Shown piece after piece: positions 29,768 through 57,383 of a stretch of DNA of 64,000 nt; the stretch's first letter is position 1, and each line of letters begins with the position of its first letter. This stretch comes from Barnesiella viscericola DSM 18177 (GTDB lineage: Bacteria > Bacteroidota > Bacteroidia > Bacteroidales > Barnesiellaceae), in NCBI RefSeq assembly GCF_000512915.1, contig NZ_CP007034.1, positions 496,001 through 560,000 of the forward strand, written 5' to 3'. The translations under genes and the position numbers were made by a program. The notes beneath the pieces are model-generated. The model was not told the origin of the DNA. It did no database searches and saw only the letters and a program-made list of their open reading frames with translations.

Positions 29768-29838
29768 TATAAGCCATCGGAAGCGGGGCATCAGGGAACT
29801 TTTGAAGATGGTCATCACAAACTTCAAAACTGATATTT

Positions 29839-31603: not shown

Positions 31604-31608
31604 CCCCT

Positions 31609-31722: not shown

Positions 31723-31738
31723 CACAAAAGAGAGCATC

Positions 31739-35575: not shown

Positions 35576-37306
35576 CTACAGTTTCCACCCGGAAATACTT
35601 TCCTGTATTTCCCACAAATGCGCATAAAGTCCTTCCTTTCGGACAAGTTCGTCGTGCGTGCCTTCTTCCCGTATCCGCCCGTTGTCAAGGACGATGATTC
35701 GGTCTGCATTCTTGATTGTTTTGAGCCTGTGGGCAATGGCAATGACGGTACGTCCTTTAATCAACGAGTTGATGGCTCGTTGTACCTCCACTTCGTTTTC
35801 AGGGTCGAGCGAGGCGGTAGCTTCATCCAGCAGGATGACTTGTGCGTCTTTCAGCATGGCACGGGCAATGGATATGCGTTGTTTCTCGCCTCCGGACAAG
35901 GTGCAGCCGCCTTCGCCCACCATCGTGTCGTAGCCTTGCGGCAGGCGCATGATGAAGTCGTGGCAGCAGGCTTTCCGGGCGGCGGCGATGATTTCCTCGT
36001 CCGTCGCGTCCGCCTTGCCGAAACGGATGTTGTTGCGTATCGTGTCTTGAAACAGATAGACATCTTGGAACACCATAGAGATGTGGCTCATCAGACTTTC
36101 GGGGGCTATTTCGTCCATCGGCACGCCGCCAAAGGAGATGCGTCCCTGCTGTGGGTCGTAGAAACGGGCGCAAAGTTTCATCACCGTGCTTTTCCCGCTT
36201 CCCGAAGGACCTACAAGAGCCGTCAAGGAGTTTTTGGGGAGCGTGACGGTTATATCATGCAGCACTTCCTTGCCCTGATAGGCAAACGATACGTGCTCAA
36301 ACCGGATGTCGCCTGCTACCGGGGATTGCCGTTCTCCTTTCATTTCCGGCTCGTTCATTAAGGAAAGAATACGTCCTCCTGCAATGGAAAAGTATCGGAA
36401 CTCTGTGAAATTGGTCAGGGCAGAAGTCAATGGGTCGAACACACGGGAACCGACCACGAGAAACAGCACAAATACGAGGATGGAAAGTTCCCCTCCCAAT
36501 AGCAGATATGTTCCGCACAGCACCATCATCGTCAGCCCTGCACGTACCAACGTGATGCTCAATAGGACAAATGGCCCTAACAGGGCTTCCTGACGGATGC
36601 AGGCACGGCGAAGTTCGCCAAAGGCATTGCGCAGCCGGACAAAACGGTCGCCCAGCAGATTGTAGGCTTTCATCACCCGGATACCCTGCAAGTATTCCTC
36701 CAATCGGTTTCCTGCATTTATCTTCGCTTGGATTTGCCTGCCGCTCAGCTTCCGTTGCGCCTTTGTACTTGCCCATAGGACGAGCAAGGCAAGCGGCAAC
36801 GCGGCAAACATACTGACCGCCATTCTCCAATCTATCCATATCAATGAAGCAAAAGCCAGCACTGGCATTACCACTGCGCCCATCAATTGGGGCAGATGGT
36901 GAGAGATTCCCGTTTCTGCCATCATGAAGTCCGTAACAAGCATAGACGACAAATCACCCGGATCACGTTTCGACAAAAAGCCCAACGATAGTTTCCGCAA
37001 GTGCTCCGCCAGCGACAAACGCCCGGAAGCACTCATTTCGTATGCTCCTCTAAAATTGGCTCGGTAGGATGCCCGTTCTGCCAAAGCCATGACCAGCATA
37101 TAAACAGCCATAATGCCGAATATCCACCACAGGTGGGTCGTGTCAAGCGGCTGTCCGCTCCCGTCAAATGCACTGAAAATGATACGTATCGCTTCTATAG
37201 AAAGACAAAACGGTACTATATTCACTAAGTTGGCAAGCATGGTGTAACCCACCGGCTTGTAAAGTCTTTCCGTGTGACCTATTGTAATATTCTTTATTGC
37301 ATTCAT
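35576..37306 (-). CDS. ABC transporter, fused permease and ATPase (1)
   Basis: A 576-residue half-transporter: six membrane segments in the first about 310 residues, then an ATPase domain with Walker A GPSGSGKST (about 367), signature LSGGEKQR (about 468), Walker B VILLDEATASLDPE and the H-loop IAIAHRL. It belongs to the type-IV exporter-fold group that also includes siderophore importers such as YbtP/IrtA. With the second half-transporter (37943-39745) it probably forms a heterodimer. It is the last gene of a reverse-strand run ABC-methyltransferase-ABC-methyltransferase. Confidence 0.9.
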   Translation of the reverse strand: MNAIKNITIGHTERLYKPVGYTMLANLVNIVPFCLSIEAIRIIFSAFDGSGQPLDTTHLWWIFGIMAVYMLVMALAERASYRANFRGAYEMSASGRLSLAEHLRKLSLGFLSKRDPGDLSSMLVTDFMMAETGISHHLPQLMGAVVMPVLAFASLIWIDWRMAVSMFAALPLALLVLWASTKAQRKLSGRQIQAKINAGNRLEEYLQGIRVMKAYNLLGDRFVRLRNAFGELRRACIRQEALLGPFVLLSITLVRAGLTMMVLCGTYLLLGGELSILVFVLFLVVGSRVFDPLTSALTNFTEFRYFSIAGGRILSLMNEPEMKGERQSPVAGDIRFEHVSFAYQGKEVLHDITVTLPKNSLTALVGPSGSGKSTVMKLCARFYDPQQGRISFGGVPMDEIAPESLMSHISMVFQDVYLFQDTIRNNIRFGKADATDEEIIAAARKACCHDFIMRLPQGYDTMVGEGGCTLSGGEKQRISIARAMLKDAQVILLDEATASLDPENEVEVQRAINSLIKGRTVIAIAHRLKTIKNADRIIVLDNGRIREEGTHDELVRKEGLYAHLWEIQESISGWKL

Positions 37307-37314
37307 ATCTTATT

Positions 37315-37935
37315 TTATTTATATGCTATAATATGTATTTCTTCCTTTTTACGGATTGTTCTGATGGATGAAAATCCGACTTCATGCAACCGTTCTTCCA
37401 ATTCTGCCGGAGTATAGACAACCATACCATCTATCCGTTCCGTCCACATTTTTCCAAGTTCGGGGTCGCTCGCTTCCAGACTAATAAGGAAACAACCTCC
37501 TTCTCGGAGAACACGCGCCACTTCAGACAACGCTATGTTTACAGGCGACCAGAAATAGACCGTTTCAAAAGCCGTGATAGCATTAAAGAATCCATCCTCA
37601 TAAGGTAATGAACAAACATTCCCTTGTTGTATGAAACATCTTTTATCCAAGTCTTTTGCATTGTACTTTTGGGCGAATGAAACACTTTCTTCTGACAGGT
37701 CTATGCCGTAGATGTTTCCTTTCGGGCATAAATTCAATAGACGTTTCAAATTCGCACCGCCGCCGCAGCCTATATCAAGCACATTCCATTCCGGCTGCCA
37801 TTCCACTTGCTTCATGCCACGATTGGCTAAAGATGCATGAAAACGATTCATCCCTCGCAAAATCATCCGTCCCCAGAATCCTTGCGGACAGCTTGTGTTT
37901 TGCAAGACTTTGTTTAAGAAATTCTTTTTTCCCAT
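37315..37935 (-). CDS. Class I SAM-dependent methyltransferase
   Basis: A 206-residue enzyme with the Rossmann SAM-binding motif VLDIGCGGGANLKRL (about 51-65), acidic IYGIDLSEESV as motif II, and the Leu-rich EVARVLREGGCFLIS motif IV region. It is a UbiE/ubiquinone-type small-molecule methyltransferase by motif. It lies between the two ABC genes with 8-nt gaps, so a shared substrate with the transporters is likely. What it methylates is unknown. Confidence 0.85.
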   Translation of the reverse strand: MGKKNFLNKVLQNTSCPQGFWGRMILRGMNRFHASLANRGMKQVEWQPEWNVLDIGCGGGANLKRLLNLCPKGNIYGIDLSEESVSFAQKYNAKDLDKRCFIQQGNVCSLPYEDGFFNAITAFETVYFWSPVNIALSEVARVLREGGCFLISLEASDPELGKMWTERIDGMVVYTPAELEERLHEVGFSSIRTIRKKEEIHIIAYK

Positions 37936-37942
37936 ATGACTT

Positions 37943-39745: not shown

Positions 39746-39755
39746 TGTTGTTAAG

Positions 39756-40571
39756 TTATTTTGAAATGATTTTATACCCAAGCAACGAACTGAACTTATA
39801 GCACAGCCGCGTCATCCGCCCCAGTATATGCCCGAAGAAGAATCCCCAGCGCGGACGGAAGAACTTCATGTAGTTGGCTTGCTCGATGAGTTGTAAGGTT
39901 GGCTCCCATTGTTCCACTAAATGCCCGTCGCTCAGCCCGGAACGGATTTGAGCTTCGTGCTTGCGGAGGGAATCAGGCTTCACTCCGTGCCGGCTCATCA
40001 TCGTGCCGCACACGTCGAACCACAGTTCGCCTCCCCCGAAACGGATCGCCACGTGATGCAGGAAGGATTTTACTTGCTTCTCGTAGAAGTACATCAGTAC
40101 CCCCTCCACGATGAAGATAAATTCTGCTTCGGGGTGCTTCCGGCGCAGGTCATCCATCCAGTCGGTTTCCAGCAAGGACGCCGCGATATAGACATTGCCC
40201 GGCTGTTCGGGTATCAACTCCCGGCGCAATGCGATGACCTCCGGCAAATCAAGGTCATAAAAGACCGCTTTCCCGTCCCCGATACGCTGGAAACGGGTAT
40301 CCAGTCCACATCCCACATTGACCACGACCGGATGCGAATGTGCTTTAATAAATCGGCGCACAGCGCAGTCAAAATACCATCCACGCACCACGCATCCCAC
40401 TTCGCTCAACTTTGCCCCGTCGAACTGGGAATAATCGTATTCCAAACTGTCCGCCAGCCATTCCGCAGCCTTGTCATATAGAATGGGATTATTCCGGCGA
40501 CTTTCTTTGGCTCTCATGTATAGCGGAATAAGCAATGTCTCCGCTACAATGCTCTTAAACTCGTGTTTCAT
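39756..40571 (-). CDS. LCMT/TcmP-type SAM methyltransferase
   Basis: A 271-residue enzyme with the leucine carboxyl methyltransferase/TcmP fold: VVNVGCGLDTRFQRIGDGKA (about 85-104) is the SAM site of this subfamily, and FIFIVEGVLMYFYEKQVKSF (about 150-170) is the second conserved block. Family members O-methylate carboxylates of peptides or polyketides. It is the first gene of the ABC/methyltransferase run and follows the TetR terminator. The substrate is unknown. Confidence 0.85.
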   Translation of the reverse strand: MKHEFKSIVAETLLIPLYMRAKESRRNNPILYDKAAEWLADSLEYDYSQFDGAKLSEVGCVVRGWYFDCAVRRFIKAHSHPVVVNVGCGLDTRFQRIGDGKAVFYDLDLPEVIALRRELIPEQPGNVYIAASLLETDWMDDLRRKHPEAEFIFIVEGVLMYFYEKQVKSFLHHVAIRFGGGELWFDVCGTMMSRHGVKPDSLRKHEAQIRSGLSDGHLVEQWEPTLQLIEQANYMKFFRPRWGFFFGHILGRMTRLCYKFSSLLGYKIISK

Positions 40572-40685
40572 CTTTATTCTATTTTAATAGTGAACGTTTC
40601 GATCAAGTGAGGGCAAAGCGAGTTTACTTGCTTTGCCGAACGTGAGAAAGGTGCGCAATAGCGAACGATATTCAGATTTGTTCAT

Positions 40686-40720
40686 AAAAAAAGGAGGAAA
40701 CCTCCGTGAAGATTTCCTCC
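40686..40720 (-). terminator. Terminator after the TetR gene
   Basis: On the reverse strand GGAGGAAA pairs with TTTCCTCC around a 12-nt loop, followed by seven Ts. It separates the TetR gene from the methyltransferase gene at 40571. Confidence 0.8.
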
Positions 40721-40771
40721 CTGCCAGCCGCTCTGATGCGGCTGATTGCTTGTATGTACGTTGTCTGTCTC

Positions 40772-41383
40772 TCATATCTTGATGATTGCCCTCCAACCTT
40801 GAATCTCAAATAGAATATAATCGTGCAGGATAGCTTCCATTTCCTGTCGGGGTACGGAATGCATCAATAGCTCCTCGAACATCGTGAACATCCATACCGT
40901 ATGCAAATGAATGATAAAATCGGACACAGCCGTATTGATTTCGGGATGTTTCCGCTGCATGGACGCGAACCACGCCTTAACCAATTCCGTGGAACGGTCG
41001 GTATAATTCTCACGGAAGCGTTCCAATGAAGAACCTTGCGCACGGAACAACAGTATTTCCATTAGCGAACGGTGTTTGTCTATAAGCGAAACATATTCGT
41101 CAATGCAGGATTTCAGGTATTTTTCCGACCGCATCATCATAATATCTTCGCCCCGTATGCCATGGTGTTCTTGCAGCATGGCTTCCAAAGCGCACAAAAC
41201 AGGACGGACCACTTCATGGAATAATTCATCTTTGCTTGTGAAGTAGTTATAGATATTCCCGACACCAACCCCAGCTAACTCCGCTATTTCGCGCATTGAA
41301 GTTTTGGAATAGCCTTTCTTCTCGAATTGCTGCCTGGCAATCGTCAATATCCGACCCCTTATGTCCTCTTTCAGCACTTGCAT
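40772..41383 (-). CDS. TetR/AcrR-family repressor
   Basis: A 203-residue repressor. The N-terminal helix-turn-helix reads ILTIARQQFEKKGYSKTSMREIAELAGVGVGNIYNYFTSKDELF (split over about residues 12-55), the TetR signature. The rest is the helical ligand-binding domain. It lies between the uptake operon and the ABC/methyltransferase genes and may control either or both. A promoter with both boxes sits just upstream. Confidence 0.9.
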   Translation of the reverse strand: MQVLKEDIRGRILTIARQQFEKKGYSKTSMREIAELAGVGVGNIYNYFTSKDELFHEVVRPVLCALEAMLQEHHGIRGEDIMMMRSEKYLKSCIDEYVSLIDKHRSLMEILLFRAQGSSLERFRENYTDRSTELVKAWFASMQRKHPEINTAVSDFIIHLHTVWMFTMFEELLMHSVPRQEMEAILHDYILFEIQGWRAIIKI

Positions 41384-41466: not shown

Positions 41467-42966
41467 TCAGTTATGAACCTGTTTATTTCTGTTCTTTTTC
41501 CGCAACTTCCATCCGCTCCACAGACACCACACAATGGCAATGCCGGCGATGAACACGAACACATACGTGGCGGCAATGCCGATGTAGATGCGTCCGCTGT
41601 GGACTTCCAGAGCGAAGTTCCAAAGCGACATGGGGAGCGCGGCGAGGCTTTCCGGCTGGGGAAGCGCGTTCGTCCCGTTGTAGTATTCCACGGCAAACGG
41701 CTCTTTACCCAAGTCCGCGCTGAAACCCGATATGGCTTTCTTGCCAAACGGAGGACCGGACTTATCCTCGGCCTGTTCGCCCGTGAACCAGTCGGTCGCC
41801 GTGCCTTGCGCTCTGTTCCATACAAACAGTCCGCTGAACGAGCCGCAGAGCCAATGACCTTGCACTTCGCGCTGCCATACGTTCAACCCCATCACGCTGA
41901 CGGGTGGCGTATGTGTCAGCCTTTCGGGGATGGCTTCGAACGATTTCAGGGAATAAAAGCCTTCGGAAGTGGAGAGCAACCAGTCGCCGCAGGCGGTGTC
42001 GTAGCGCACCATTCGCAGTTTGTCGTTCCACGGGTTCGGGCTGTCAAGGGTGCTTCCGGGCAGGGCCGGCGTATCGGTCAGTGCAAGAGCTATCAGTACG
42101 GGCGGACGGAGACACCAGCCTGTCACGGCAATAAGTAGGGTCAATACAAGGGTGGTGCGGCCTAACTTGTCATGCCACAGCAACGAGAGGCGCGTCCAGC
42201 GTGCCGCCTTGTCCGCACTCTTTCCTTGTTTGTGTCTGCGCCGCATGTATTTAGGCAGTAGCCAGTAGAGGATACCCGTCAGGCTGAGCAACACCAATAC
42301 CACGGCCACCGCATCCATGACGAGCTTGCCCGGCATACCGAACAGTTCGCCCGTATGCAGCACCCACACCGTGCGGAACAGGGAGACTTTGCCGTCATAG
42401 TCCGACGGGGCTTGCAACTGTATCTTACGGAATTGGGTATGGGGAGACATGGAGATATAGAGATAAGAACGGCCCAGCACCGCCAGCGTGTCGCCCTTGC
42501 AGGTCATGTCCGTCAGCATTTCATCTCCGTCCGTAGGGAGCGGTATCTGCTGCCAACCTGTGTGGATGCCGTAACGGTACAGCCCGAAAGGACTGAGCGC
42601 ATACAGGCTGCCGTCCGCCGTTTGCGCCACGGCACGTATCTGCCGATAGTCTGCTCCATCGGACAGTCCGTCGTTGAAGTCGGCGAATGCGGAAGCGGAA
42701 GTGTCCGTCCGCCAGATGCCACCCGTGCCATAGACCAGCACACGGCGCACGCTGTCCTCGTCCGTATAGGGCAATGTGCCCCGCAGCAGGCCACCGTTCC
42801 ATTTCGTGTATTCGTAACGGACAGGCAGCCACTTCCTGCTGATGTCGACATCACGCACAAGCCACCGGTGGTTCAGCACGATGCCCGACAGACAGAACAT
42901 CAGCAGAAAAAGGCTGAGCGCGATGCCCAGCCACTTATGATGTTTTTTCCATGTAATCCGTTTCAT
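41467..42966 (-). CDS. PepSY-domain inner-membrane protein
   Basis: A 499-residue membrane protein. The first membrane segment (WLGIALSLFLLMFCLSGIVLNHRW, in two parts) is the typical PepSY-associated TM start, a second cluster lies around 230-260 and 280-300 (LLSLTGILYWLLPK; LVLTLLIAVTGWCL), and the last near 470. The periplasmic parts are beta-rich (DGSLYALSPFGLYRYG). PepSY proteins of this shape serve iron or siderophore uptake loci, as reductases or transport partners, including XusC in Bacteroides. It is the last gene of a tightly overlapping operon. Confidence 0.8.
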   Translation of the reverse strand: MKRITWKKHHKWLGIALSLFLLMFCLSGIVLNHRWLVRDVDISRKWLPVRYEYTKWNGGLLRGTLPYTDEDSVRRVLVYGTGGIWRTDTSASAFADFNDGLSDGADYRQIRAVAQTADGSLYALSPFGLYRYGIHTGWQQIPLPTDGDEMLTDMTCKGDTLAVLGRSYLYISMSPHTQFRKIQLQAPSDYDGKVSLFRTVWVLHTGELFGMPGKLVMDAVAVVLVLLSLTGILYWLLPKYMRRRHKQGKSADKAARWTRLSLLWHDKLGRTTLVLTLLIAVTGWCLRPPVLIALALTDTPALPGSTLDSPNPWNDKLRMVRYDTACGDWLLSTSEGFYSLKSFEAIPERLTHTPPVSVMGLNVWQREVQGHWLCGSFSGLFVWNRAQGTATDWFTGEQAEDKSGPPFGKKAISGFSADLGKEPFAVEYYNGTNALPQPESLAALPMSLWNFALEVHSGRIYIGIAATYVFVFIAGIAIVWCLWSGWKLRKKNRNKQVHN

Positions 42967-43847
42967 GCCGTTGCCGTCTGTTTCTTGTGCAACTTATTAT
43001 ATATGAGGTAAGCGGCAGTCGCCAGTAGCGACAGTCCGATGACCGCCAGTTGGTCGGTATGTTCCGACGGTGCCGCCCACAGGCCTTCCAACACGTGGAT
43101 ACGGTCGAACACCTCCACACCTATCCAGAAGATGATGACCGTGGCATAGCCGTAGCGCAGGCTCATGCCCCATGCCGGATAGCGCAGCAGCCGGGCGAAC
43201 ATGAACAGCGAACCGATGAACCCGACCATGCCCACAAGCAGGGTCACAGGGCTGTGGTCGCCGATGAACCGTCCGTCATAGCAGAACATCAGCAGCAGGT
43301 AGCACGTCCAGAGCATCGTCACCACCTCCATGAAGACCACGATGCTGGTGTGGCGCGTCATGGGGCGGGCGGCAATCTCCTTCTTGTGCCTGCCGAAGAA
43401 CAGCCTTTGCCACCAGTTGAGGAAGTTGCAGCCGTTGCGTGTGCAGAACAGGTAGAGCATCATCGTCATCGCCCAAAAACCGAAGGTGGCGGGCAGCAGC
43501 AGGTACTCCGGGCGGCTGACAACCTCGCCCGTCACAGGGTCGAGCTGTGCCTGCGTGCCGAAGCGGTTGGCGTAGTACATGAAGAGGAAGTCCACCGCCC
43601 CCATCCAGTAGAACATACCGCCGAACAGTCCGAGCAGGGTCTGACGCGCGTCTCCCTTCACGAACACGCCGACGATGACCATCAGCAGTCCTACGGCACC
43701 CATACCCATACCGGCATAGAACTGCTCCACGCCCGAAGTGCCGTCCTTCAGCGCACGGGCAAGGATATGGGTCAGCGGCATGGCCACGAGGGTGACAGCT
43801 ATCGAGACGACCGCCTTCGCCCAGTGCAGTTGCTTCGTCCCGCTCAT
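42963..43847 (-). CDS. Multi-span membrane protein, paralog 1
   Basis: A 294-residue membrane protein with about seven or eight hydrophobic segments: VVSIAVTLVAMPLTHIL, GAVGLLMVIVGVFV, LLGLFGGMFYWMGAV, FGFWAMTMMLYLF, FMEVVTMLWTCYLLLMF, VTLLVGMVGFIGSLFMFA and ATVIIFWIGVEVF. Shared Arg/Asn/Pro motifs with its neighbour include YYANRFGTQAQLDPVTGEVVSRPEYL and NWWQRLFF. I do not recognise the family. It overlaps the PepSY gene by 4 nt and the second paralog by 4 nt, so all three are translated together. Confidence 0.75.
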   Translation of the reverse strand: MSGTKQLHWAKAVVSIAVTLVAMPLTHILARALKDGTSGVEQFYAGMGMGAVGLLMVIVGVFVKGDARQTLLGLFGGMFYWMGAVDFLFMYYANRFGTQAQLDPVTGEVVSRPEYLLLPATFGFWAMTMMLYLFCTRNGCNFLNWWQRLFFGRHKKEIAARPMTRHTSIVVFMEVVTMLWTCYLLLMFCYDGRFIGDHSPVTLLVGMVGFIGSLFMFARLLRYPAWGMSLRYGYATVIIFWIGVEVFDRIHVLEGLWAAPSEHTDQLAVIGLSLLATAAYLIYNKLHKKQTATA

Positions 43848-44761
43848 TGTGCCGAGGCTTTACGTTTCGCGCTCTTGTACCACAGGTACACCGCTAAGGC
43901 TACGAACGCCAGAAGGATGATAATCATCTCCGTCTTGTGTTCCATGGGTGCCGTCCATATCTCGCTGAACAGGTCCATGCGTCCCAATATCTCCACGGGC
44001 GTCCAGAACACGATGACCGTGGCGATGGCCATGCGGATGTTCGCGCCCCACGAGGCAATGCGCAGCTGCTTGGCGAAGATGAAGAACGACCCTATCAGGC
44101 AGCCCAGCCCCACGAGCAGGGTTACGGGATGGTGGTCGCCGAGGAACACGTCATCGTAGCAGAACATCAGCAGCAGGTACGAGCCCCACAGAATCATCAT
44201 CAGTTCCATGAAGGTCACGATGCTGGCGTGGCGTGTCATGGGGCGTGCGGCAATGTCGTTCTTCCGCCCCCGGAACAGCAGCCGCTGCCACCAGTTGATG
44301 AAGTTGCAGCCGTTCTTCGTGCTGAACAGGTACATGATCATTATCATCATCCAGAACCCGAACGAGGCGGGCATGATGAGGTATTCGGGCCGCGTCACCA
44401 CCTCGCCCGTCACGGGGTCGAGCTGCGGCTGCGTGCCGAAGCGGTTGGCGAAGTACATGAAAAGGAACTCCACCCAGCCCGTCCAGAACAGCAGGCCGCC
44501 GAACAGCCCCCAAAGGGTCTGCCGCGTGTCGCCCTTGGCAAACACGCCGATGATGACCATCGCCATGCCCACCGCGCCCATCGCAAAGGCGGAATAGTGG
44601 AGCACGGTCTCGCTCATCAGGTGTTCCATCATAATCATCAGCGCATGTCCCAAAGGCATGGTGAACAGTACCAAAAGGAAGGAGGCGGAGGCTTTCCACC
44701 AGTAAAGTTTCTTGCCCGGCGGCGTGCCCGCCGTCTTTGTCGTTTCAGTCTTTTGTTCCAT
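43844..44761 (-). CDS. Multi-span membrane protein, paralog 2
   Basis: A 305-residue membrane protein closely related to the preceding one: FANRFGTQPQLDPVTGEVVTRPEY, FGFWMMIMIMYLF, NGCNFINWWQRLLF and PMTRHASIVTFMEL have direct matches in paralog 1. The extra N-terminal basic tail (ETTKTAGTPPGKKLYWWK) precedes the first segment. It is a tandem duplication that has diverged, with conserved tryptophan and His positions (TRHxSIV). The role may be an electron- or metal-linked membrane complex, which is inference. Confidence 0.75.
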   Translation of the reverse strand: MEQKTETTKTAGTPPGKKLYWWKASASFLLVLFTMPLGHALMIMMEHLMSETVLHYSAFAMGAVGMAMVIIGVFAKGDTRQTLWGLFGGLLFWTGWVEFLFMYFANRFGTQPQLDPVTGEVVTRPEYLIMPASFGFWMMIMIMYLFSTKNGCNFINWWQRLLFRGRKNDIAARPMTRHASIVTFMELMMILWGSYLLLMFCYDDVFLGDHHPVTLLVGLGCLIGSFFIFAKQLRIASWGANIRMAIATVIVFWTPVEILGRMDLFSEIWTAPMEHKTEMIIILLAFVALAVYLWYKSAKRKASAQ

Positions 44762-45005
44762 AATGTTCCAACAGTTTTCGTTTGATATACTTTTTATAAA
44801 TCACAATCATCAGGAGTGCCGCCACCAAAAGGACGGAATGCAATGCAAGGGTGAACTCCCATGCAGGTGACTTCTCCGTGCCGCCGTACTTGCCGTACAT
44901 GACAAAGTGGGCGACGGTGACCGCCAGCACAAAAATAGTGACCAGCGTCCATTTCACCCATTTGCGGTTGCAGAATTTCCAAAAACGAAAGAGTGTCTTT
45001 TCCAT
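44745..45005 (-). CDS. Small two-span membrane protein
   Basis: An 86-residue protein from MEKTLFRFWKF (45005; an ATG at 45011 adds two residues) with two membrane segments: WTLVTIFVLAVTVAHFVMYG and LALHSVLLVAALLMIVIYKKY. Its end overlaps the next gene by 17 nt and its start lies close behind the HmuY-like gene. The position between lipoprotein and membrane paralogs suggests a subunit of the same envelope complex; no family recognised. Confidence 0.65.
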   Translation of the reverse strand: MEKTLFRFWKFCNRKWVKWTLVTIFVLAVTVAHFVMYGKYGGTEKSPAWEFTLALHSVLLVAALLMIVIYKKYIKRKLLEHYGTKD

Positions 45006-45013
45006 AAGCATGC

Positions 45014-45724
45014 CTATTTCAGTTCGTCGCAGTAATAACTGATTCTTCCTCCTTCGTCACCTATCTCCACATTGGCATCATACCAGCTGATAATCTGTAT
45101 TTTGAAGTAACGCTGTCCGTCTGCCGTACGCACTACGTATGTATGGAAAGACGGAGTATATACAGGAGGAGGTCCGGCAAACGTCATCGCCTCGGCCAGC
45201 AACGGATTGGCATTGGTCTTTGTCCTTTGCGGTCCGTTGTTCGGGTCGAACCAGGGATTAGAATCAAAATCCAGCCCGTTCTCCACCAGGTAATGGTTCC
45301 AGTCGTTCTGCGACATGGTCACACTGACCTCACCATTATCGACCACCCATTCCAAATCCGACGGTAACTGCGAAACGCTTGTCCACTTATTGTATTCGCC
45401 ATATCCCAAGTCGGCTGCACCTCCACGGCCTATACCACTGGTACCGCTGTTCGTTCTCAACACGTAGCCGCAAAAAGCCAAGTCCCAATCCGTGCGGTCG
45501 TACTGTTCGCCTTCCTTGATGTCCTTGTTCACCCCATAGGCATTGAACATTTCGCCGGTGCGCAGGTTAAAATAAATCCAGTCGTTCGTCACACCGGTGG
45601 AATAACCCGACTTGCGCGGCAGTGTCTTTCCGTTGAAAGGCTGTATGTCGTCATAGTCCACACAAGCGGTCATCGTCAGACCCCCCAACAGAAAAGCCAT
45701 TATTTTCAATTTCAAACCTTTCAT
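45014..45724 (-). CDS. HmuY-like surface lipoprotein
   Basis: A 236-residue lipoprotein. The signal peptide ends in GGLTMTACVDYD, lipobox Cys at residue 21. The mature protein has the HmuY-type start: WIYFNLRTGEMFNAYG, DWDLAFCGYVLRTNSG (about 79-94), later beta-rich sequence and a C-terminal RYFKIQIISWYDA. HmuY in Porphyromonas gingivalis takes heme and passes it to its TonB receptor. The heme-binding His pair of HmuY is not evident here, so the ligand could be another chelate. The start overlaps the receptor stop by four bases. Confidence 0.8.
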   Translation of the reverse strand: MKGLKLKIMAFLLGGLTMTACVDYDDIQPFNGKTLPRKSGYSTGVTNDWIYFNLRTGEMFNAYGVNKDIKEGEQYDRTDWDLAFCGYVLRTNSGTSGIGRGGAADLGYGEYNKWTSVSQLPSDLEWVVDNGEVSVTMSQNDWNHYLVENGLDFDSNPWFDPNNGPQRTKTNANPLLAEAMTFAGPPPVYTPSFHTYVVRTADGQRYFKIQIISWYDANVEIGDEGGRISYYCDELK

Positions 45725-48081
45725 TTCCTTTTCTTTAATGAGTTAATCACATCATCAAGCATAAATTCCATCTGTACCCATCCGCGGGTTCCGGCTGTAG
45801 CCGGAACATTGAACATCGTAATCCCGGAACCCAGTGTTTTCGGCACATAGTTGAACAGATTGTCCACACCAAGAGTCAGCTTCACCTTGTTCCAGAAAGT
45901 CTGCGATACGGAGAGGTTGCACAGTACATATTGCGGAAGGTCGCAACGGAAATAGGCATCATAGCTCTTGTTGTCCTCTTCCACGAATACGCGATCCTGC
46001 ACATCGAACTTCTTGCTTCCCATATACGATGCACTGAACACAGCATTCAGACGATAATTCTTCCGTGCATATTTATAATCCAGACTTGCAGTAGCAGCGT
46101 GTGGAGATGTGGTATTTACCTGTATGCCCTCGTTCTTGCTCACATTGACATAACTGTAAGTTCCGTTAAGGGTCATACAATCCAATACCCTCCAGCGTAA
46201 CAAAGCTTCAATACCCAACAGACGCTGCTTGCTCAGATTGGTATATTCAAAATTGTACTGCATGTCATAAATACGCCACACTCCCTCAATCTTGTCGCGG
46301 AAATAGTTGCCGTATGCCGTACCGGACACGAACAGGCGGTCGTTCGAATATTCTGCACCGAGCGAAAAGTAATTGTTCTTCTCCGGCTGCATGTTCTCAT
46401 TACCGCGAATCATGAACATTCCCAAATGGTCCCAGTTGAAGAAAAGTTCCTTGATACTGGGAGAACGGTAACCCATTGAATAGTTGGCGCGGATAGCCCA
46501 CTGCTCATTGGGTGAATATTTTGCAGCCACTTTAGGCATAGCCATGAAACCGAACGCACGCGAGAAGTTAGTGCGCAGTCCGGCAGACACCATCCATTGG
46601 GGATTAATGGTCCATTCGTCCTGCAGGAAATATTCCGTCTCTTTCAGGGCGCGGGTTTTCAGGTCATGGTTGGCATTGCCCGAAAAACGGTCGCTGGTCA
46701 ATTCGTCAGAAGTGTGTTCGATGCCGAATATCAGACTGTGGCCGTCGAAGTAGTCGCTCGTCACGGTCAGACGGGGTTGCCAGATGCTGCTCTCATAGTC
46801 CTTATTACGGGTATCGATGCGCTCATGGCGCTTGTATCGGTTATAGAAATCCCCGTGCAGGCTTCCGGTCACGCTGAACCAGTCTTTCATATGGTAAGTC
46901 ACCTTGGCCCCGGCGTTCCATTCGTTCGCCTGACTGAACGTCATGTCCTGTATCAGGTCGTACGTGTTCATGAAGAAGCCTCCTCCATATACCAAAACTG
47001 ACAAATCTTTTATCGGATCGTAATAGACTTTCTGTGACATCGTGATGTGCTCCTTGCCTTCGATACCCATTGGCGGGCGGGCTGCGGTGCTGACCACCGT
47101 GATGTCATGGGGAAGGAAAGGGTTGGCCTCCTGCGTATAGACTTTCTTGTCGTTCTCCGCCTGATACATATAGAATGCGTCGGTGGAGCTGTACCACACA
47201 TCGGTCTGCGAGGTCACTTTGCCCGTATTGAAGCCGGCTGACACCCAGCCTTGCAGGTTGGGGCGGTCGGCATTCTGCTCGAACATATACAGGAAGTCGC
47301 TGGGCTGCGGATTCTTGTAGTTGCGCTCGTTCATCTGTCCATAACGCACTCCGGCGTCTATCGACAGCGGTTTGGAGGTCTTTTTGGTTATCAGGTTGAT
47401 GACAGCTCCAGCCGCACGGCTTCCGTAGAGGGTGGAGCTTGCACCTTTCACTATCTCGATGCGGTCTATGGCATGAAGGTTGAAACGTTCATAGTCCAGG
47501 TTGCCCGCCATGTCGCCCGTCATGCGCTCGCCGTCCATGAGGAACAGCACGTGTCGGGCGTCGAGGCCCTGCATGGAGATTTCGTTGCCGAAGCCCACCT
47601 TCTGGATGTTCAGTCCCGGCGTTTCCTGTTGCAATGCCTGCTGGAGGTTGCTGTACCCGGCATCCACCAACGCCTTGCCGCCCAACACCTGCGTGGTGAC
47701 GGGCGACAGCTTGATGGGGCGTGCCGTGCGGCTGCCGGTCACCACCACCTCGTTCAGGCCCAATGCGTCTTCTTTCAAGTAAACGGTTTTGGCCGTTTCG
47801 GAGGATTCTATCCGTCCCGTATCGGGCACGAAGCTGACGTAGGTCACTTTGTAATACCACGTGTCACCGGACGTAAGTTTCAATACGGCCTTCCCATCCG
47901 TGTCGGTGATGGTGTATTGCGCGTTCTGCATAGCCTCGTTGTCAGCATAGGAAATGTTGGCGGCGATGATGGGCTGTTCCGTCCCGTTCTCCAACACCGT
48001 CAGCGTGAGCTTCCGCTGCGCCGCCACGTCCACGCACGCCAGCACCGCAAACAGCAGGATGAGTATGGTTGTTCGTTTCAT
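45721..48081 (-). CDS. TonB-dependent outer-membrane receptor (HmuR-like)
   Basis: A 786-residue receptor. It has a signal peptide (ILILLFAVLACVDVAAQ), an N-terminal carboxypeptidase-regulatory-like domain, a TonB-dependent plug (ALVDAGYSNLQQALQQETPGLNIQKVG, then ASSTLYGSRAAGAVINLITKK, about 145-230), and a beta-barrel to the C-terminal aromatic end. Heme-receptor-type landmarks are GYRSPSIKELF (FRAP-like, about 535) followed by NENMQPEKNNYFSLG (NPNL-like). It should import the HmuY-bound ligand across the outer membrane with TonB energy. It is followed by the HmuY-like gene through a 4-nt overlap. Confidence 0.92.
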   Translation of the reverse strand: MKRTTILILLFAVLACVDVAAQRKLTLTVLENGTEQPIIAANISYADNEAMQNAQYTITDTDGKAVLKLTSGDTWYYKVTYVSFVPDTGRIESSETAKTVYLKEDALGLNEVVVTGSRTARPIKLSPVTTQVLGGKALVDAGYSNLQQALQQETPGLNIQKVGFGNEISMQGLDARHVLFLMDGERMTGDMAGNLDYERFNLHAIDRIEIVKGASSTLYGSRAAGAVINLITKKTSKPLSIDAGVRYGQMNERNYKNPQPSDFLYMFEQNADRPNLQGWVSAGFNTGKVTSQTDVWYSSTDAFYMYQAENDKKVYTQEANPFLPHDITVVSTAARPPMGIEGKEHITMSQKVYYDPIKDLSVLVYGGGFFMNTYDLIQDMTFSQANEWNAGAKVTYHMKDWFSVTGSLHGDFYNRYKRHERIDTRNKDYESSIWQPRLTVTSDYFDGHSLIFGIEHTSDELTSDRFSGNANHDLKTRALKETEYFLQDEWTINPQWMVSAGLRTNFSRAFGFMAMPKVAAKYSPNEQWAIRANYSMGYRSPSIKELFFNWDHLGMFMIRGNENMQPEKNNYFSLGAEYSNDRLFVSGTAYGNYFRDKIEGVWRIYDMQYNFEYTNLSKQRLLGIEALLRWRVLDCMTLNGTYSYVNVSKNEGIQVNTTSPHAATASLDYKYARKNYRLNAVFSASYMGSKKFDVQDRVFVEEDNKSYDAYFRCDLPQYVLCNLSVSQTFWNKVKLTLGVDNLFNYVPKTLGSGITMFNVPATAGTRGWVQMEFMLDDVINSLKKRK

Positions 48082-48096
48082 CGTACTGCCCGGAGA

Positions 48097-48729
48097 TTAA
48101 TTCTTGCCCTGTTCTTTCTTGGCTTCTTCCAAGTCTTTTTCATATTGGGCAAACTCTTCCTCGAAGCGGTCAATGCGTGTGGGGTCGATGGTCTGCAAGA
48201 AGGTCTCCGTGCGCACGTTCATCATATTGTAGTCCACGATGAACTCCACTTGCTTGGTGTCCACGTTCAGGAAACCATCCACACGTGCACCGCTCCCTTC
48301 CTGGTTGTCCGCAGCGTCATCGCCGCTCGTGGTGACGTTTCCGTCCGTTCCCACGAACTTCACCCAACCGCTGCCGGGGTATTCATCCTTTTCCCAACTG
48401 TTGAGTTGCATAAACTTCGTTGCACAGCGGAAGGTGATGGCAAAGGGCATGGCGCCAACGGTGAAGTCGCTCAGGTCGAGCACCATCATACCGTCTTCTC
48501 GCCACGTAAAACTGAACTTGGTGGGGCAACCGCTTTCCAGCAGCGTCTTGTCCACGCCGCTCATTGTAGCACGGGTTGAGAGCACGATGTCTCCTACAAG
48601 GATTTCCTTTGCCTTATCAATATATTCCTGTGCAGGTGGCTCATTGGTAAGTGAATCGTCACTTTCACACGAACTTAATCCGATTACTGTTGCCATAAGA
48701 AAGCTGAATAAAAAGTATAACTTTTTCAT
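48097..48729 (-). CDS. Lipoprotein of unknown function in the uptake operon
   Basis: A 210-residue lipoprotein: signal peptide ending in IGLSSCESDD with Cys about residue 21. The mature part is beta-rich (TKFSFTWREDGMMVLDLSDF; MPFAITFRCATKF) with a charged helical tail (FEEEFAQYEKDLEEAKKEQ). It may belong to a DUF4903-type group seen beside HmuY genes, but this is not certain. It is the gene immediately before the receptor, 15 nt away, so it is probably a surface or periplasmic partner in ligand capture. Confidence 0.65.
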   Translation of the reverse strand: MKKLYFLFSFLMATVIGLSSCESDDSLTNEPPAQEYIDKAKEILVGDIVLSTRATMSGVDKTLLESGCPTKFSFTWREDGMMVLDLSDFTVGAMPFAITFRCATKFMQLNSWEKDEYPGSGWVKFVGTDGNVTTSGDDAADNQEGSGARVDGFLNVDTKQVEFIVDYNMMNVRTETFLQTIDPTRIDRFEEEFAQYEKDLEEAKKEQGKN

Positions 48730-49127
48730 TTTGCTTATATAATTTACTTGTTTTGTAACCTATAATTGTTTCCTGTTCATTACCCTTGCCTGCGTGTATT
48801 CCGCAAAGGGTATGTAAAGTCATGGTTTTTACATGATTAAAGGCAGGCTTTTTCCGATGGCAAAGTCTGTCTTTGATGTGTACCGCATGTAGGCTGGCGG
48901 TTTGGATAATTTTGTTTCCTCGCCGTCGGTTGCATACCGGGAGTGTTTTTAGCGGCATAGCAGCCTTGCCGACAAGATAATGGTTTTCTTCCCCATTGGG
49001 TGAGGTGAATATGTTGTGATAAATTTTTCTTAGTAAACACACAAAAAGAGCTAACAGAAAGCCGTTTGACGGCTTTCCCCTTACTCTTTCTGAATTTAAA
49101 TTCGTTGCTTGACAAAATAATGACGAA
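48730..49127. other. Intergenic region between the small peptide gene and the 48097 lipoprotein gene
   Basis: About 400 nt without a credible gene on either strand. It contains the hairpin at 49057-49077. The rest is AT-rich leader to the lipoprotein gene; no strong -7 box is seen (TATAGGTTAC is near but not a match). Confidence 0.55.
49057..49077 (-). terminator. Hairpin ending the LRR lipoprotein/peptide transcript
   Basis: GAAAGCCGT pairs with ACGGCTTTC with a 3-nt loop. Read leftwards it is followed within 20 nt by CTCTTTTTG, so it could end the LRR/peptide transcript, though the T-tract is not adjacent. Confidence 0.5.
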
Positions 49128-49268
49128 TTATTTTGTTCCAACAAAGTGTACGGATGCAGGGAAATCTGCACCTAAGAACTTACCGGATACCGCAAGAGTA
49201 AACTCAGCAGACTGCGCCATTCCGAAACTTGCTGCAACAAGGGTAGCTCCTAAGAAAAATTTTCGCAT
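49128..49268 (-). CDS. 46-residue secreted peptide or remnant
   Basis: Starts MRKFFLGATLVAASFGMAQS, a convincing signal peptide (basic start, hydrophobic core, AQS-A cleavage). The rest is a short beta-like mature part (AEFTLAVSGKF, then FPASVHFVGTK) ending at TAA. It begins 40 nt after the LRR lipoprotein gene on the same strand, so it is likely co-transcribed. It may be a small secreted peptide, or the stump of a larger outer-membrane protein. No family recognised. Confidence 0.5.
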   Translation of the reverse strand: MRKFFLGATLVAASFGMAQSAEFTLAVSGKFLGADFPASVHFVGTK

Positions 49269-49307
49269 CGTTTTTATAATTAAAGTTTAATAAAAAATAA
49301 TTACACT

Positions 49308-50744
49308 TTATTTTTGTTTGTTCAATAAAGTCCTCCAACGGCATCCTTTGTTTTTATCATACGATAAAGAAGAAGTATAACCTAACCTTCTGACCGTATC
49401 GTCTGGGTCAATGTCTGTATAATTTGCTTTCAGGAATGCTTGGGTTGATTCTCTATAGAAAGTGTTCTCTGAACAAGCGAAATAAGTACCGGCATATCCA
49501 TCTTCACTATAGAAAATGGTCAGTTCCGGATAAACCAGATTAAAGTCTTTATTCAAATCACCTATACTGAGTTCTGCTACCATCTTGACATTCGACATGT
49601 CAAATGTTTCCAATGCGTCCAAGCATTCAATATCAATTCTGTAGGCTTTCAATTCATTTTTTTCGGGCAATTTGATTTCTTTCAGTATAGGACATCCCAG
49701 AACCATCAGACTACTGCCATACGTACCATTGCCTTCCGTTTCTTTATCTCCTTGACCCCAAATAGTGGAATAACTCAAATCTAACTTCTGCAATGCCGGG
49801 TTATTTTGGACCCAAGCACTTCGCAAATCTGTAGCATTGGATAAGTCGATATCTTCCACTTCTATATTTTGCAGGATGACTTGGGTTATGAATTTCCCTA
49901 CTTTTATATTGGGCATAGAAGCTATACTTTCTTCTCCGGCAGAATAAAGGCTGATTTTAGCACCTTCCCAATAAGGATTCTCCACCAGAAACTGAATACC
50001 CTCAAAGTTGGTAACATTATCAGCAGGAGCAACAAGCAGTTCCTTTGTTTTCTGGTCGAGTCCCAAATGTTTGCTAAGGTCTATTTGGTCGCCGTTAAAC
50101 AGATCGGCAAAATTTGTCTGCAAATAAGTGAGCAGGTTTGCGTCGGGCACGTCGCGCAGGGTGGTATAAGTTTGCAGATTGCCGTCGACATCAGTCATCT
50201 TCATATCAATGGTGCCGGCGGTGATGGCTTCCTTGTTTTGGCGGTAGAAACGCACGAGATCTTCGATATTCTCTTTAGCGGTTTCCGGAAGGTAAAGTTT
50301 GGTAATTTCGTGCAGGTTAGTCACAGTTTCATCGCCGTTTTCTTCCACTACGACACTCACAAGATTATCATAGTCGTAGATTTCATTACCCGTCAGGTCT
50401 ATGCCGGTGATTTGTTCCGGTAATTTGGCAAAGTCGAACGCCGGGCCGTAACCATTTCCCGACAAATCCACCTCCTTCAGATTGGGCAGTATGCTCAGTT
50501 CGGCAAGCGCGTCGGTGGAGATGTTTGTTCCCGAAAGGTCGAGGGTGGTGGTATTGTTGGCCAGTTCGTCCAGTAGCAGGTTGCCGTCGGCATTGAACTG
50601 GTAGCCCTTCTGGGCAAGGATGGTTTTCAGTTCCGTGTTCTGTACGGTGGCGGTGCTGTATGAAGGCCCGTCCTCATCGTCGCTACAGGCGGTGAAGCCG
50701 AGGCACAAGGCAAGAGCGGCAACACCCATGTAAAGTTTGTTCAT
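49308..50744 (-). CDS. Leucine-rich-repeat-like surface lipoprotein
   Basis: A 478-residue lipoprotein: signal peptide ending in LCLGFTACSDDED with Cys about residue 20. The early part has LRR-like turns (TTLDLSGTNISTDAL, LKEVDLSGNGYG, QITGIDLTGNEI), later diverging into longer beta/helix alternation (EDIDLSNATDLRSAW, LQKLDLSYSTIWG). LRR lipoproteins of Bacteroidales display on the surface and bind proteins or glycans. It has its own promoter and precedes the small peptide gene. A link to heme uptake is only positional. Confidence 0.75.
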   Translation of the reverse strand: MNKLYMGVAALALCLGFTACSDDEDGPSYSTATVQNTELKTILAQKGYQFNADGNLLLDELANNTTTLDLSGTNISTDALAELSILPNLKEVDLSGNGYGPAFDFAKLPEQITGIDLTGNEIYDYDNLVSVVVEENGDETVTNLHEITKLYLPETAKENIEDLVRFYRQNKEAITAGTIDMKMTDVDGNLQTYTTLRDVPDANLLTYLQTNFADLFNGDQIDLSKHLGLDQKTKELLVAPADNVTNFEGIQFLVENPYWEGAKISLYSAGEESIASMPNIKVGKFITQVILQNIEVEDIDLSNATDLRSAWVQNNPALQKLDLSYSTIWGQGDKETEGNGTYGSSLMVLGCPILKEIKLPEKNELKAYRIDIECLDALETFDMSNVKMVAELSIGDLNKDFNLVYPELTIFYSEDGYAGTYFACSENTFYRESTQAFLKANYTDIDPDDTVRRLGYTSSLSYDKNKGCRWRTLLNKQK

Positions 50745-50784
50745 CGTTTCAATTTAATTTAAGTTACACTTATTTTTATCGGTG

Positions 50785-50816
50785 CAAAATTACAATCATG
50801 TCAGAACCCTTACAAT
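50785..50816 (-). promoter_or_regulatory. Promoter of the LRR lipoprotein gene
   Basis: On the reverse strand TTG (50815-50813), 20 nt, TAATTTTG (50792-50785). The ATG at 50744 lies about 40 nt downstream. Confidence 0.6.
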
Positions 50817-50899
50817 ACCTTAAAATTGGTATTTTTGTGTTCACTATTTGTGGGTAGGAAATCCAAATTGAAAACATAACATACTGAATTTAAAAGGAA

Positions 50900-56395: not shown

Positions 56396-57334
56396 CTAAG
56401 AATAAAATAACGTGAGTTCGATATAATTCAAAACATAGTAAGTTGCCCGTCCTTGACAAAAACACAGGTCAATGGCGGGCTTCTTTTCAAAGAAACAGTA
56501 TGCCGCTATGGCAGATAGCGAATTGGCAATGAAGTTATTGAAGGAACGGTGTCTGGAGTGTTCAATCTGTGCGATATTCTTCAACTCATCATTGACCGTT
56601 TCTATCAAAGCCCGTTTTCTCAGCAGAATCCTGTCAGCTACGCTCATCAGGGAATTCTTCATGTTGTTCTTCACTTTGGTTATCAGCTGTATGCCGTTAA
56701 GAAATAGGTTCTCGAACAAGGTTTGCCCGATATACCCCTTGTCCGCACACAGTTTGCCCTTGATGTTCTTCAGGAACTTTGTCTGTTTCAGCGGTTCACG
56801 GTCATCCACATTTCCCGGAGTAAACATGAAATTGAGAATTTCACCCTTATCGTTGATGATCAGGTGAAGCTTAAACCCGAAGAACCATCCCATGGAACAT
56901 TTTCCACGCCCGGCAAGTCCCTCAAATGTCTTATGAATCAAGATTCTTTGGTTACGACAAACACGTAAAGGAGTGGAGTCAACAAAACTGATACCGGTAC
57001 AGGTTCCCAGCAGTACTTTTTTGATGAAGATGGTCATGGGAAGTAATACTTCCTTCTCCAGTTCTACAAAACGGTTATAAGATACTTGATGCGGGAAAAG
57101 GTGTTTCAGATGTTTACAAACATATTCCTTGTAGTAATGCTTGAAGCAGCGGAAACCACCAGAGTGGAACAGGATTAGAATAACCATAATCTCAGCATCA
57201 CTCATACGGTTAGGTTTGTTACGATGCCTGGTCTTCTTCTCCTCAATCATATATTTTTTCTGTTGCAATACAAATTCCTTGCAAAAATCATCTGCCATAC
57301 AATAAATCTCCGTAACTTTAGACTCTGGAAACAT
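56396..57334 (-). CDS. IS982-family transposase
   Basis: A 312-residue DDE transposase. IS982 landmarks are ISFVDSTPLRVCRNQRI, HKTFEGLAGRGKCSMGWFFG and FKLHLIINDKGEILNF with the catalytic acids, and ALIETVNDELKN near the C-terminus. Its last codons cross the inverted repeat at 56408-56427 and the stop lies 10-12 nt beyond it in flanking DNA, so the last few residues are not IS-encoded. It appears intact, but its right end is separated by an IS4 insertion. Confidence 0.88.
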   Translation of the reverse strand: MFPESKVTEIYCMADDFCKEFVLQQKKYMIEEKKTRHRNKPNRMSDAEIMVILILFHSGGFRCFKHYYKEYVCKHLKHLFPHQVSYNRFVELEKEVLLPMTIFIKKVLLGTCTGISFVDSTPLRVCRNQRILIHKTFEGLAGRGKCSMGWFFGFKLHLIINDKGEILNFMFTPGNVDDREPLKQTKFLKNIKGKLCADKGYIGQTLFENLFLNGIQLITKVKNNMKNSLMSVADRILLRKRALIETVNDELKNIAQIEHSRHRSFNNFIANSLSAIAAYCFFEKKPAIDLCFCQGRATYYVLNYIELTLFYS

Positions 57335-57383
57335 AGTGGTAATCGTTTAAATGTTATAATTGGCACTGCTGTCCGGAGAAATT

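What the first reader, a model, noticed from the sequence alone, without database searches (positions are those of the whole stretch)
41467..48729. Mobile uptake operon with a tandem pair of unknown multi-span membrane proteins
The receptor, HmuY-like lipoprotein, small membrane protein, two paralogous membrane proteins and PepSY protein overlap by 4-17 nt in sequence. The paralogs share NRFGTQxQLDPVTGE and NWWQRL motifs, match no family I know, and sit where classical hmu loci carry HmuS or ABC genes. This could be an undescribed inner-membrane module for heme or iron-chelate processing.
Basis: partly seen in the sequence, partly recalled or inferred. Interest (0 to 1): 0.8.

Follow-up and report, generated by a model that had tools for sequence, protein, structure and literature searches.

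The report
New membrane proteins in iron-uptake operon
A gut-type bacterium carries an apparently acquired set of genes for capturing an iron (or similar) compound, including a pair of membrane proteins from an unnamed family that often travels with a likely iron-reducing enzyme; they may supply an inner-membrane step of iron uptake that is still unidentified.

Summary
In detail: a tight operon encodes a DUF4903 lipoprotein, TonB receptor, HmuY-family lipoprotein, 2-TM protein, two paralogous 8-TM proteins (M1/M2) and a PepSY_TM protein. M1/M2 match no Pfam, NCBIfam or PDB sequence. The family is real (361 relatives in one scan). Of 76 non-redundant nearest named loci, 43 have HmuY within 3 kb (0.5 expected) and 29 have PepSY_TM within 1 kb. 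Protein distances suggest two modules: receptor with HmuY, M1 with PepSY_TM. In one genome M and PepSY_TM sit with a FecCD-type importer; in another M ends an hmu operon. M2 is a single old, diverged duplicate. 'Heme' weakens: the window HmuY is 83% identical to B. fragilis HmuY-Bf-3 (PDB 8b61), reported to bind neither heme nor protoporphyrin. M also occurs without iron-linked neighbours (25 of 76 named, 22 of 30 unnamed loci). Best reading: a portable inner-membrane cassette for reductive release and transfer of iron from an imported chelate, PepSY_TM being the reductase and M1/M2 its membrane partner.

The parts
48097..48729 (-). DUF4903 lipoprotein, probably surface-exposed (acidic residues after the lipobox Cys; inference)
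   Evidence: PF16246 E 9e-91; lipobox context
45721..48081 (-). TonB-dependent receptor, heme/siderophore type
   Evidence: PF00593, PF07715; TIGR01785/TIGR01786 about 1e-41 but below curated cut-offs
45014..45724 (-). HmuY-family lipoprotein, HmuY-Bf-3 (BfrC) type
   Evidence: PF14064 E 9e-30; 191 of 230 residues identical to PDB 8b61; 8B61 = HmuY-Bf-3, binds neither heme nor PPIX (PMC12106395, passages)
44745..45011 (-). small protein with two predicted TM segments, accessory; a counterpart seen in L020-L022
   Evidence: hydropathy; 61% homologue in L020-L022
43844..44761 (-). M1: 8-TM protein of an unnamed family
   Evidence: no family hit, no PDB sequence hit up to E 10; conserved residues; tree
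42963..43847 (-). M2: diverged paralogue of M1
   Evidence: 57% identical to M1; M2 clade 100/100; E98D in 6 of 6 and E267 lost in 6 of 6 M2 rows
41467..42966 (-). PepSY_TM protein, probable di-heme metal/chelate reductase (inferred)
   Evidence: PF03929 E 6e-22; PDB 7abw E 8e-4 (that 7abw is FoxB is recalled); invariant H10, H33, H204, H265, H456 in 24 of 24 rows
49308..50744 (-). LRR lipoprotein upstream, recurrent member of the same operon type
   Evidence: LRR matches; a homologue upstream in 28 of 30 named type A loci, not in L047 and L094
40772..41383 (-). TetR regulator downstream; possibly associated
   Evidence: PF00440; TetR and ABC genes also near M in L046, L076, L087
39756..40571 (-). 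LCM-type methyltransferase; association uncertain
   Evidence: PF04072
37943..39781 (-). ABC transporter half A; association uncertain
   Evidence: Pfam; best bacterial relatives among the 60 of 234 solved sequences shown: 6p6i chain A (YbtPQ entry, name recalled) and IrtA
37315..37935 (-). methyltransferase between the ABC halves; association uncertain
   Evidence: PF08241 E 3e-20
35576..37306 (-). ABC transporter half B; association uncertain
   Evidence: Pfam; best bacterial relatives among the 60 of 257 solved sequences shown: the two chains of 6p6i, one of them YbtQ

Best explanation
The locus is a horizontally acquired system for taking up an iron (or similar metal) chelate, built from two modules. 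Outer module: surface lipoproteins and the HmuY-Bf-3-type protein hand a chelate, probably not heme, to the TonB receptor, which brings it into the periplasm. Inner module: the FoxB-like PepSY_TM protein reduces the metal and releases it. M1, with its partner M2, is the membrane partner of this reductase. Most likely it is a permease that takes the released Fe(II) across the inner membrane through a path with conserved His/Glu/Asp; a close second is that it feeds electrons to the reductase. Shown: the genes, the family, the linkage, the co-divergence of M1 with PepSY_TM, the conserved residues. Inferred: reductase chemistry, membrane sidedness, substrate, and the exact step done by M.
For: Linkage: HmuY within 3 kb in 43 of 76 non-redundant named loci (about 0.5 expected even within 8.5 kb), PepSY_TM within 1 kb in 29 of 76. 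Module structure: over 15 dereplicated type A loci, protein-distance correlations are M1-PepSY 0.87 and HmuY-TonB 0.87, but M1-HmuY 0.69, M1-TonB 0.70, HmuY-PepSY 0.56. M1-PepSY exceeds M1-HmuY in 99% and M1-TonB in 95% of 1000 bootstraps. The inner module is portable: with HmuY type A; with type B, whose one tested HmuY (L033) is nearest 3u22 and 4gbs; with PBP-FecCD-ABC and an alpha/beta hydrolase in L029; next to TetR-ABC-ABC-MMPL in L087. M without PepSY_TM ends an hmu operon in L015. M2 goes with PepSY: 9 of 10 loci with M2 against 20 of 66 without, Fisher p 5e-4. PepSY_TM has a FoxB-like His pattern; FoxB reduces a ferrisiderophore through two His-ligated hemes, donor unknown (PMC13038864, passages). 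For the Xus system the inner-membrane carrier of the released Fe(II) is called unknown (PMC13142918, passages). M has charged residues in or near TM segments in 62 of 62 non-M2 rows (H39, E98, D203, E257; E186 in 61). Low-iron setting: M in L016 lies near hemerythrin, LuxR-type regulator, flavodoxin, TetR and MMPL genes; genes with such annotations are listed as low-iron-induced in P. gingivalis, P. intermedia or B. thetaiotaomicron (PMC10434189, passages; orthology not tested).
Against: 25 of 76 named and 22 of 30 unnamed loci show none of the iron-linked neighbours sought; in 7 of 30 M lies beside an HtpX-like gene instead. The window genome already has FeoB, so an extra Fe(II) permease is not obviously needed. 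M has no PepSY_TM within 1 kb in 47 of 76 named loci, though 14 of 76 have short flanks. PepSY_TM genes also occur away from M: the window genome has another at 1441364-1442449. All gene pairs of the type A operon co-diverge (0 of 1000 permutations as high for each of 10 pairs), so the module split is a difference of degree; before dereplication M1-HmuY and M1-TonB are 0.84 and 0.85. No structure could be computed. Sidedness is my reading of hydropathy and positive charges. The PepSY_TM protein shows no PepSY-domain (PF03413, accession recalled) match, so its substrate site may differ from FoxB's. The 80 named loci are the best of 361 by similarity to the window protein, so the linkage rate is biased towards this branch.
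Confidence: 0.45

Rival explanations
1. M1/M2 are the electron-entry part: a quinol- or cytoplasm-facing protein that passes electrons to the hemes of PepSY_TM, whose donor is unknown.
For: M1-PepSY_TM co-divergence; FoxB's donor is stated as unknown; invariant C152, W157, Q159 and R243 lie in loops that I read as cytoplasmic; in the distant locus L121 M is near COX1 and hemerythrin genes.
Against: Only one His is invariant (H39), with H211 in 59 of 62, so a bis-His heme is not well supported; M often has no PepSY_TM neighbour.
Confidence: 0.2
2. M1/M2 are a permease for the intact chelate or for its metal-free part (porphyrin-like or siderophore), taking the place of HmuSTUV.
For: The window genome has one HmuY and no CobN/HmuS match; 10 of the 13 type A genomes tested have no CobN match; M ends the hmu operon of L015.
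Against: In L015 M coexists with the other hmu genes; in L029 it coexists with a FecCD-type importer that would carry the chelate; the M family goes with different HmuY classes.
Confidence: 0.15
3. M is a general membrane stress or assembly protein, and its presence in uptake operons is incidental hitch-hiking in low-iron regulons.
For: No iron-linked neighbour in many loci; beside an HtpX-like gene in 7 unnamed loci; beside hemerythrin genes in others.
Against: Overlapping reading frames, repeated recruitment or loss (label A needs at least 7 changes on the tree, B at least 5), co-divergence with PepSY_TM.
Confidence: 0.15

Closest known systems
XusABC xenosiderophore system of B. thetaiotaomicron (BT_2063-2065)
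   Same: TonB receptor, surface lipoprotein and PepSY-type inner-membrane reductase (PMC13142918, passages)
   Different: No DUF4374 (XusB-type) match among the window proteins scanned; HmuY instead; M1/M2 added; PepSY_TM without a PepSY-domain match
hmuYRSTUV heme operon with HmuS de-chelatase (PMC12583661, passages)
   Same: HmuY family and a heme-type TonB receptor; M is the last gene of one such operon, in L015
   Different: Window genome has no CobN/HmuS match; its HmuY is of the Bf-3 class reported not to bind heme or PPIX
B. fragilis HmuY-Bf-3 (BfrC)
   Same: HmuY 83% identical over 230 residues. The Figure 1 legend of PMC12106395 lists pepSY and calycin genes among Hmu-type clusters (legend only; which cluster holds them was not visible)
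   Different: I saw no description of the membrane paralogues in the passages read
FoxB and other PepSY_TM reductases
   Same: Four predicted TM segments, conserved His near both membrane faces
   Different: No PepSY-domain match; periplasmic parts look like repeated beta blades by eye (unverified)
YbtPQ / IrtAB siderophore-importing ABC transporters (for the downstream ABC pair)
   Same: Best bacterial solved relatives of both halves among the 60 rows shown per search
   Different: Overall best hits are eukaryotic ABCB proteins; direction of transport untested

Membership tests
HmuY family | PF14064 match | tested here: met
   104 bits against cut-off 27
HmuY family | heme-iron-coordinating His or Met pair | tested here: inconclusive
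   Residues not mapped one by one; 83% identity to HmuY-Bf-3, which is reported to lack them and to bind neither heme nor PPIX
Classical hmuYRSTUV | HmuS (CobN-type) in operon or genome | tested here: not met
   0 PF02514 matches in G000; 5 of 14 control genomes and 7 of 20 handles matched
Classical hmuYRSTUV | HmuTUV in the operon | tested here: not met
   Window operon genes are other families
FoxB-like PepSY_TM reductase | PepSY_TM Pfam match | tested here: met
   PF03929 79 bits, cut-off 28.8
FoxB-like PepSY_TM reductase | conserved His on both membrane faces | tested here: met
   H10, H33, H204, H265, H456 invariant in 24 of 24 rows; sidedness inferred from hydropathy
FoxB-like PepSY_TM reductase | periplasmic PepSY domains | tested here: not met
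   No PepSY-domain (PF03413, recalled accession) row at E up to 1; HMMER filters may drop weak ones
FoxB-like PepSY_TM reductase | reductase activity with two hemes | not testable with these tools
   needs purified protein
XusABC | DUF4374 (XusB) lipoprotein | tested here: not met
   Not among families of the operon proteins scanned
Any described membrane-protein family, for M1/M2 | Pfam, NCBIfam or PDB sequence match | tested here: not met
   (68 members, no family in more than 2, best E 0.0035)
Any described membrane-protein family, for M1/M2 | shared fold | not tested
   Structure prediction queue full, then switched off
YbtPQ/IrtAB importers | closest to siderophore importers among proteins of the ABC exporter fold | tested here: inconclusive
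   Best bacterial but not best overall solved relatives

The most novel reading that the evidence does not exclude
M1/M2 founds a new inner-membrane family that is the missing partner of a class of PepSY_TM reductases in Bacteroidota: either the carrier that takes the released ferrous iron into the cell or the protein that feeds electrons to the reductase. It forms a portable reductive iron-release cassette used with several unrelated outer-membrane receptors, here for a chelate that is not heme.
Probability: 0.3. Interest if true: 0.75.

Novelty: new variant of a known kind. Interest (0 to 1): 0.5.

Why it matters
The electron donor of FoxB and the route of the Fe(II) released in the Xus system are described as unknown in passages seen here. 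A conserved, unnamed membrane family that co-diverges with one such reductase is a concrete, testable candidate for one of these steps. It would also suggest that a widespread class of HmuY operons in gut and oral Bacteroidales is not for heme, which matters for predicting iron competition in the gut.

Tried and rejected
Rejected: (1) 'M belongs to a known family': no hit in Pfam, NCBIfam or PDB (NCBIfam for the window proteins only). (2) 'M is heme-specific': the family goes with an HmuY of the Bf-3 class, with another HmuY class, and with a FecCD importer. (3) 'M is confined to uptake loci': not so. (4) 'M1 and M2 are a recent local duplication': M2 rows form one clade across Bacteroidaceae and Prevotellaceae. 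(5) 'Carried by phage or typical plasmid': no relative found in viral contigs; one of 72,556 plasmid records, a 1.77-Mb Prevotella replicon.

Led nowhere: structure prediction of M (never ran); PDB code search in papers (noise); paper search for HmuY with integrative conjugative element (none). That the membrane family is undescribed rests and on paper searches; the family has no name to search for, and papers outside the held library were not seen.

Dropped before counts: L021, L022, L035 and L023 as duplicates (76 of 80 named loci counted); L019 because its match was only partial. L129 (unnamed set) is the same protein as L027 (named set) and was counted in both. L012 and L129 in the unnamed set are near, not distant, relatives. 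281 of 361 relatives were never examined. Labels given from memory or by eye, without a family search: HtpX, HmuT, HmuV, FoxB for 7abw, YbtP for 6p6i chain A, Chlorobium-like.
Full report
OBSERVATION. The seven minus-strand genes between 41467 and 48729 are present and tightly packed. From receptor to PepSY, four of five junctions overlap, by 4 or 17 nt; HmuY and the small membrane protein are 2 nt apart; the DUF4903 gene ends 15 nt before the receptor. Pfam identifies DUF4903, TonB receptor, HmuY and PepSY_TM clearly, and nothing above its cut-offs for M1, M2 or the small protein. M1 and M2 are 57% identical.

SURROUNDINGS. Upstream are an LRR lipoprotein (49308-50744) and an outer-membrane barrel gene; downstream are TetR (40772-41383), two methyltransferases and an ABC pair. 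The genome is held as one contig of 3.08 Mb, with one HmuY, no CobN/HmuS match, FeoB and no ferrochelatase match (8 of 14 control genomes matched). None of the 8 same-genus genomes has M or HmuY, so the operon looks acquired. No control genome rang, but the same model found HmuY in 19 of 20 genomes.

THE FAMILY. One scan of named genomes found 361 relatives, of which the best 80 were kept. Whole-genome searches gave matches in 9 of 149 relatives (E up to 1e-3, one of them partial), 17 of 395 genomes of the phylum (1e-5) and 20 of 393 of the order (1e-10). These counts include the window genome and overlap in part. In an alignment of 68 members, 62 non-M2 rows share invariant H39, W93, W96, E98, E126, Y127, C152, W157, Q159, W192, Y195, Y202, D203, R243, W253, E257, R261, E267 and W269, with E186 in 61 and H211 in 59. 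Hydropathy fits eight TM segments; by my reading of positive charges most of these residues lie towards the periplasm.

LINKAGE. In 76 non-redundant named loci, HmuY lies within 3 kb on the same strand in 43, TonB within 3 kb in 44, PepSY_TM within 1 kb in 29 (27 on the same strand), and a hemerythrin-domain gene within 3 kb in 9. With 28 HmuY matches in 78.9 Mb of 20 genomes, about 0.5 of 76 would be expected within 8.5 kb. The loci are related and were selected for similarity, so the nominal probability should not be taken literally. PepSY_TM is commoner: 19 of 20 genomes, up to 8 matched pieces each; no chance rate was computed for it. 14 of the 76 have short flanks. Of 30 unnamed, mostly more distant loci, HmuY lies within 8.5 kb in 2, hemerythrin within 3 kb in 3, DUF4857 within 1 kb in 2, flavodoxin within 3 kb in 2, the HtpX-like gene in 7, and any iron-linked neighbour in 8. 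So the link is strong in one branch and weak in the family at large.

KINDS OF OPERON. Type A (as in the window; 30 of the 80 named loci): LRR, often a calycin-like gene, DUF4903, TonB, HmuY, M1, with or without M2 and PepSY_TM. Type B (16 of 80): another HmuY, which in the one tested (L033) is closest to solved 3u22 and 4gbs, named HmuY-Bv and HmuY-Bf-1 in PMC12106395; another TonB; then M. In five type A loci (L056, L057, L058, L066, L076) a hemerythrin-PAS gene (weak DUF1858 end; Pfam run on L058 only) sits just before M1; L055 and L087 have it before M at the contig start. In L015 M is the last gene after TonB, HmuY, a CobN-type HmuS, and three genes in the places of HmuT, U and V, of which U is ExbB-like. 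In L029 the order is PBP (PF01497), FecCD, ABC, M1, PepSY_TM, alpha/beta hydrolase. In L087 it is M1, PepSY_TM, TetR, ABC, ABC, MMPL. An operon with TetR, two ABC genes and MMPL is induced 40- to 223-fold in low iron in P. intermedia (PMC10434189, passages); orthology was not tested.

EVOLUTION. On a tree of 118 rows the M2 copies form one clade (11 rows, 100/100). Operon label A needs 10 changes (at least 7 forced by starred branches) and B needs 6 (at least 5), so M has been recruited or lost repeatedly. M2 differs from M1 at fixed sites: E98D in 6 of 6, E267 lost in 6 of 6, G38 replaced in 6 of 6. Nine of 10 non-redundant two-M loci also have PepSY_TM, against 20 of 66 one-M loci. Distance correlations over 15 dereplicated type A loci separate an outer module (HmuY-TonB 0.87) from an inner one (M1-PepSY 0.87), with 0.56 to 0.70 between them. 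Over 28 loci HmuY-TonB is 0.91 and M1-HmuY 0.68; M1-PepSY is 0.91 over 19; every one of 10 gene pairs exceeds all 1000 permutations, so all the genes share history. In the undereplicated 19 loci M1-HmuY and M1-TonB are higher, 0.84 and 0.85.

WHAT IT CARRIES. The window HmuY is 191 of 230 identical to PDB 8b61. PMC12106395 (passages and one section seen) names 8B61 as HmuY-Bf-3 of B. fragilis and reports that it binds neither heme nor PPIX. Of the 20 genomes carry type A; 10 of these 13 have no CobN match and 11 of 13 have only this HmuY. Two of the 13 share one operon DNA (L020, L022) and several are drafts, so absences are provisional. The ligand is therefore open, and heme is not the default. 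Against this, the receptor resembles heme receptors most, though below curated cut-offs. For P. bryantii B14 a proteome study reports HmuY up to 8-fold and a receptor 8- to 10-fold more abundant in acetate and valerate cultures (PMC7709123, passages). That this is the operon of L060 is my inference from strain name and single HmuY.

MECHANISM. The PepSY_TM protein has five invariant His in 24 of 24 aligned relatives, placed near both ends of its TM segments, and matches PDB 7abw (FoxB, recalled) weakly by sequence. FoxB reduces a ferrisiderophore through two His-ligated hemes with an unknown donor (PMC13038864, passages). In the Xus system the carrier of the released Fe(II) is said to be unknown (PMC13142918, passages). 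M1/M2 may be either missing piece. I favour the Fe(II) carrier because M has several invariant charged residues in or near its TM segments but only one invariant His, which argues against a bis-His cytochrome. FeoB in the same genome argues against need, and other PepSY_TM genes stand away from M, so the preference is modest: about 0.25 for the carrier alone within the 0.45 given to the module reading.

NOVELTY. The operon type is a variant of a known kind (TonB, surface lipoprotein, PepSY_TM reductase). The membrane family itself has no model in the libraries searched, and no description in the passages read. I rate it a new variant of a known kind, with a possible new functional class inside it.

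Noticed in passing
window 23501-32790: A stretch of at least 3.1 kb with DUF3987 and DUF6371 genes is present twice at 90% DNA identity (23501-26621, left edge set by the slice analysed, and 29672-32790), with a Mob_Pre relaxase and a transposase gene between, downstream of two integrase genes: a mobilizable element with an internal duplication.
   Followed up: partly
window 50900-52471: Outer-membrane barrel gene upstream of the operon is interrupted by an in-frame stop (codon 359 of 524); a relative in L036 has it in one frame.
   Followed up: partly
window 56396-58553: Two transposase genes on the minus strand in an AT-rich stretch (G+C 0.37-0.41).
   Followed up: no
window 41467-42966: Both periplasmic parts of the PepSY_TM protein carry repeated short motifs (GIW, GLY, YLY, GFY, GLF) that look by eye like beta-propeller blades instead of PepSY domains.
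   Followed up: no
window 43075-51195 against L020 and L024: The operon is a DNA mosaic: LRR and DUF4903 parts are 88% and 94% identical to L020 but the TonB-M part only 78%; DUF4903-HmuY is 92% identical to L024 but M only 78%.
   Followed up: partly
window 35576-41383: TetR, two methyltransferases and an ABC pair with YbtPQ/IrtA among the best bacterial solved relatives lie just downstream; TetR and ABC genes recur near M in L046, L076 and L087. Possibly the inner-membrane importer of the same chelate.
   Followed up: partly
L056, L057, L058, L066, L076, L055, L087: A hemerythrin-PAS protein gene sits directly before M1, suggesting a redox or NO/O2 sensor linked to M.
   Followed up: partly
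L012 7092-9095: A close relative of M1 (83-86%) has no HmuY or TonB hit in its stretch but a flavin reductase gene (PF01613) on the same strand 550 nt upstream.
   Followed up: no
L118-L120, L123, L126-L128: Distant M genes lie 14-156 nt from an HtpX-like gene (label by eye) in seven genomes.
   Followed up: no
L036 (B. fragilis Q1F2, G790): A PepSY_TM gene at 771422-772891 lies beside another HmuY match at 772944-773387, far from the M locus; whether M is there too was not tested.
   Followed up: no
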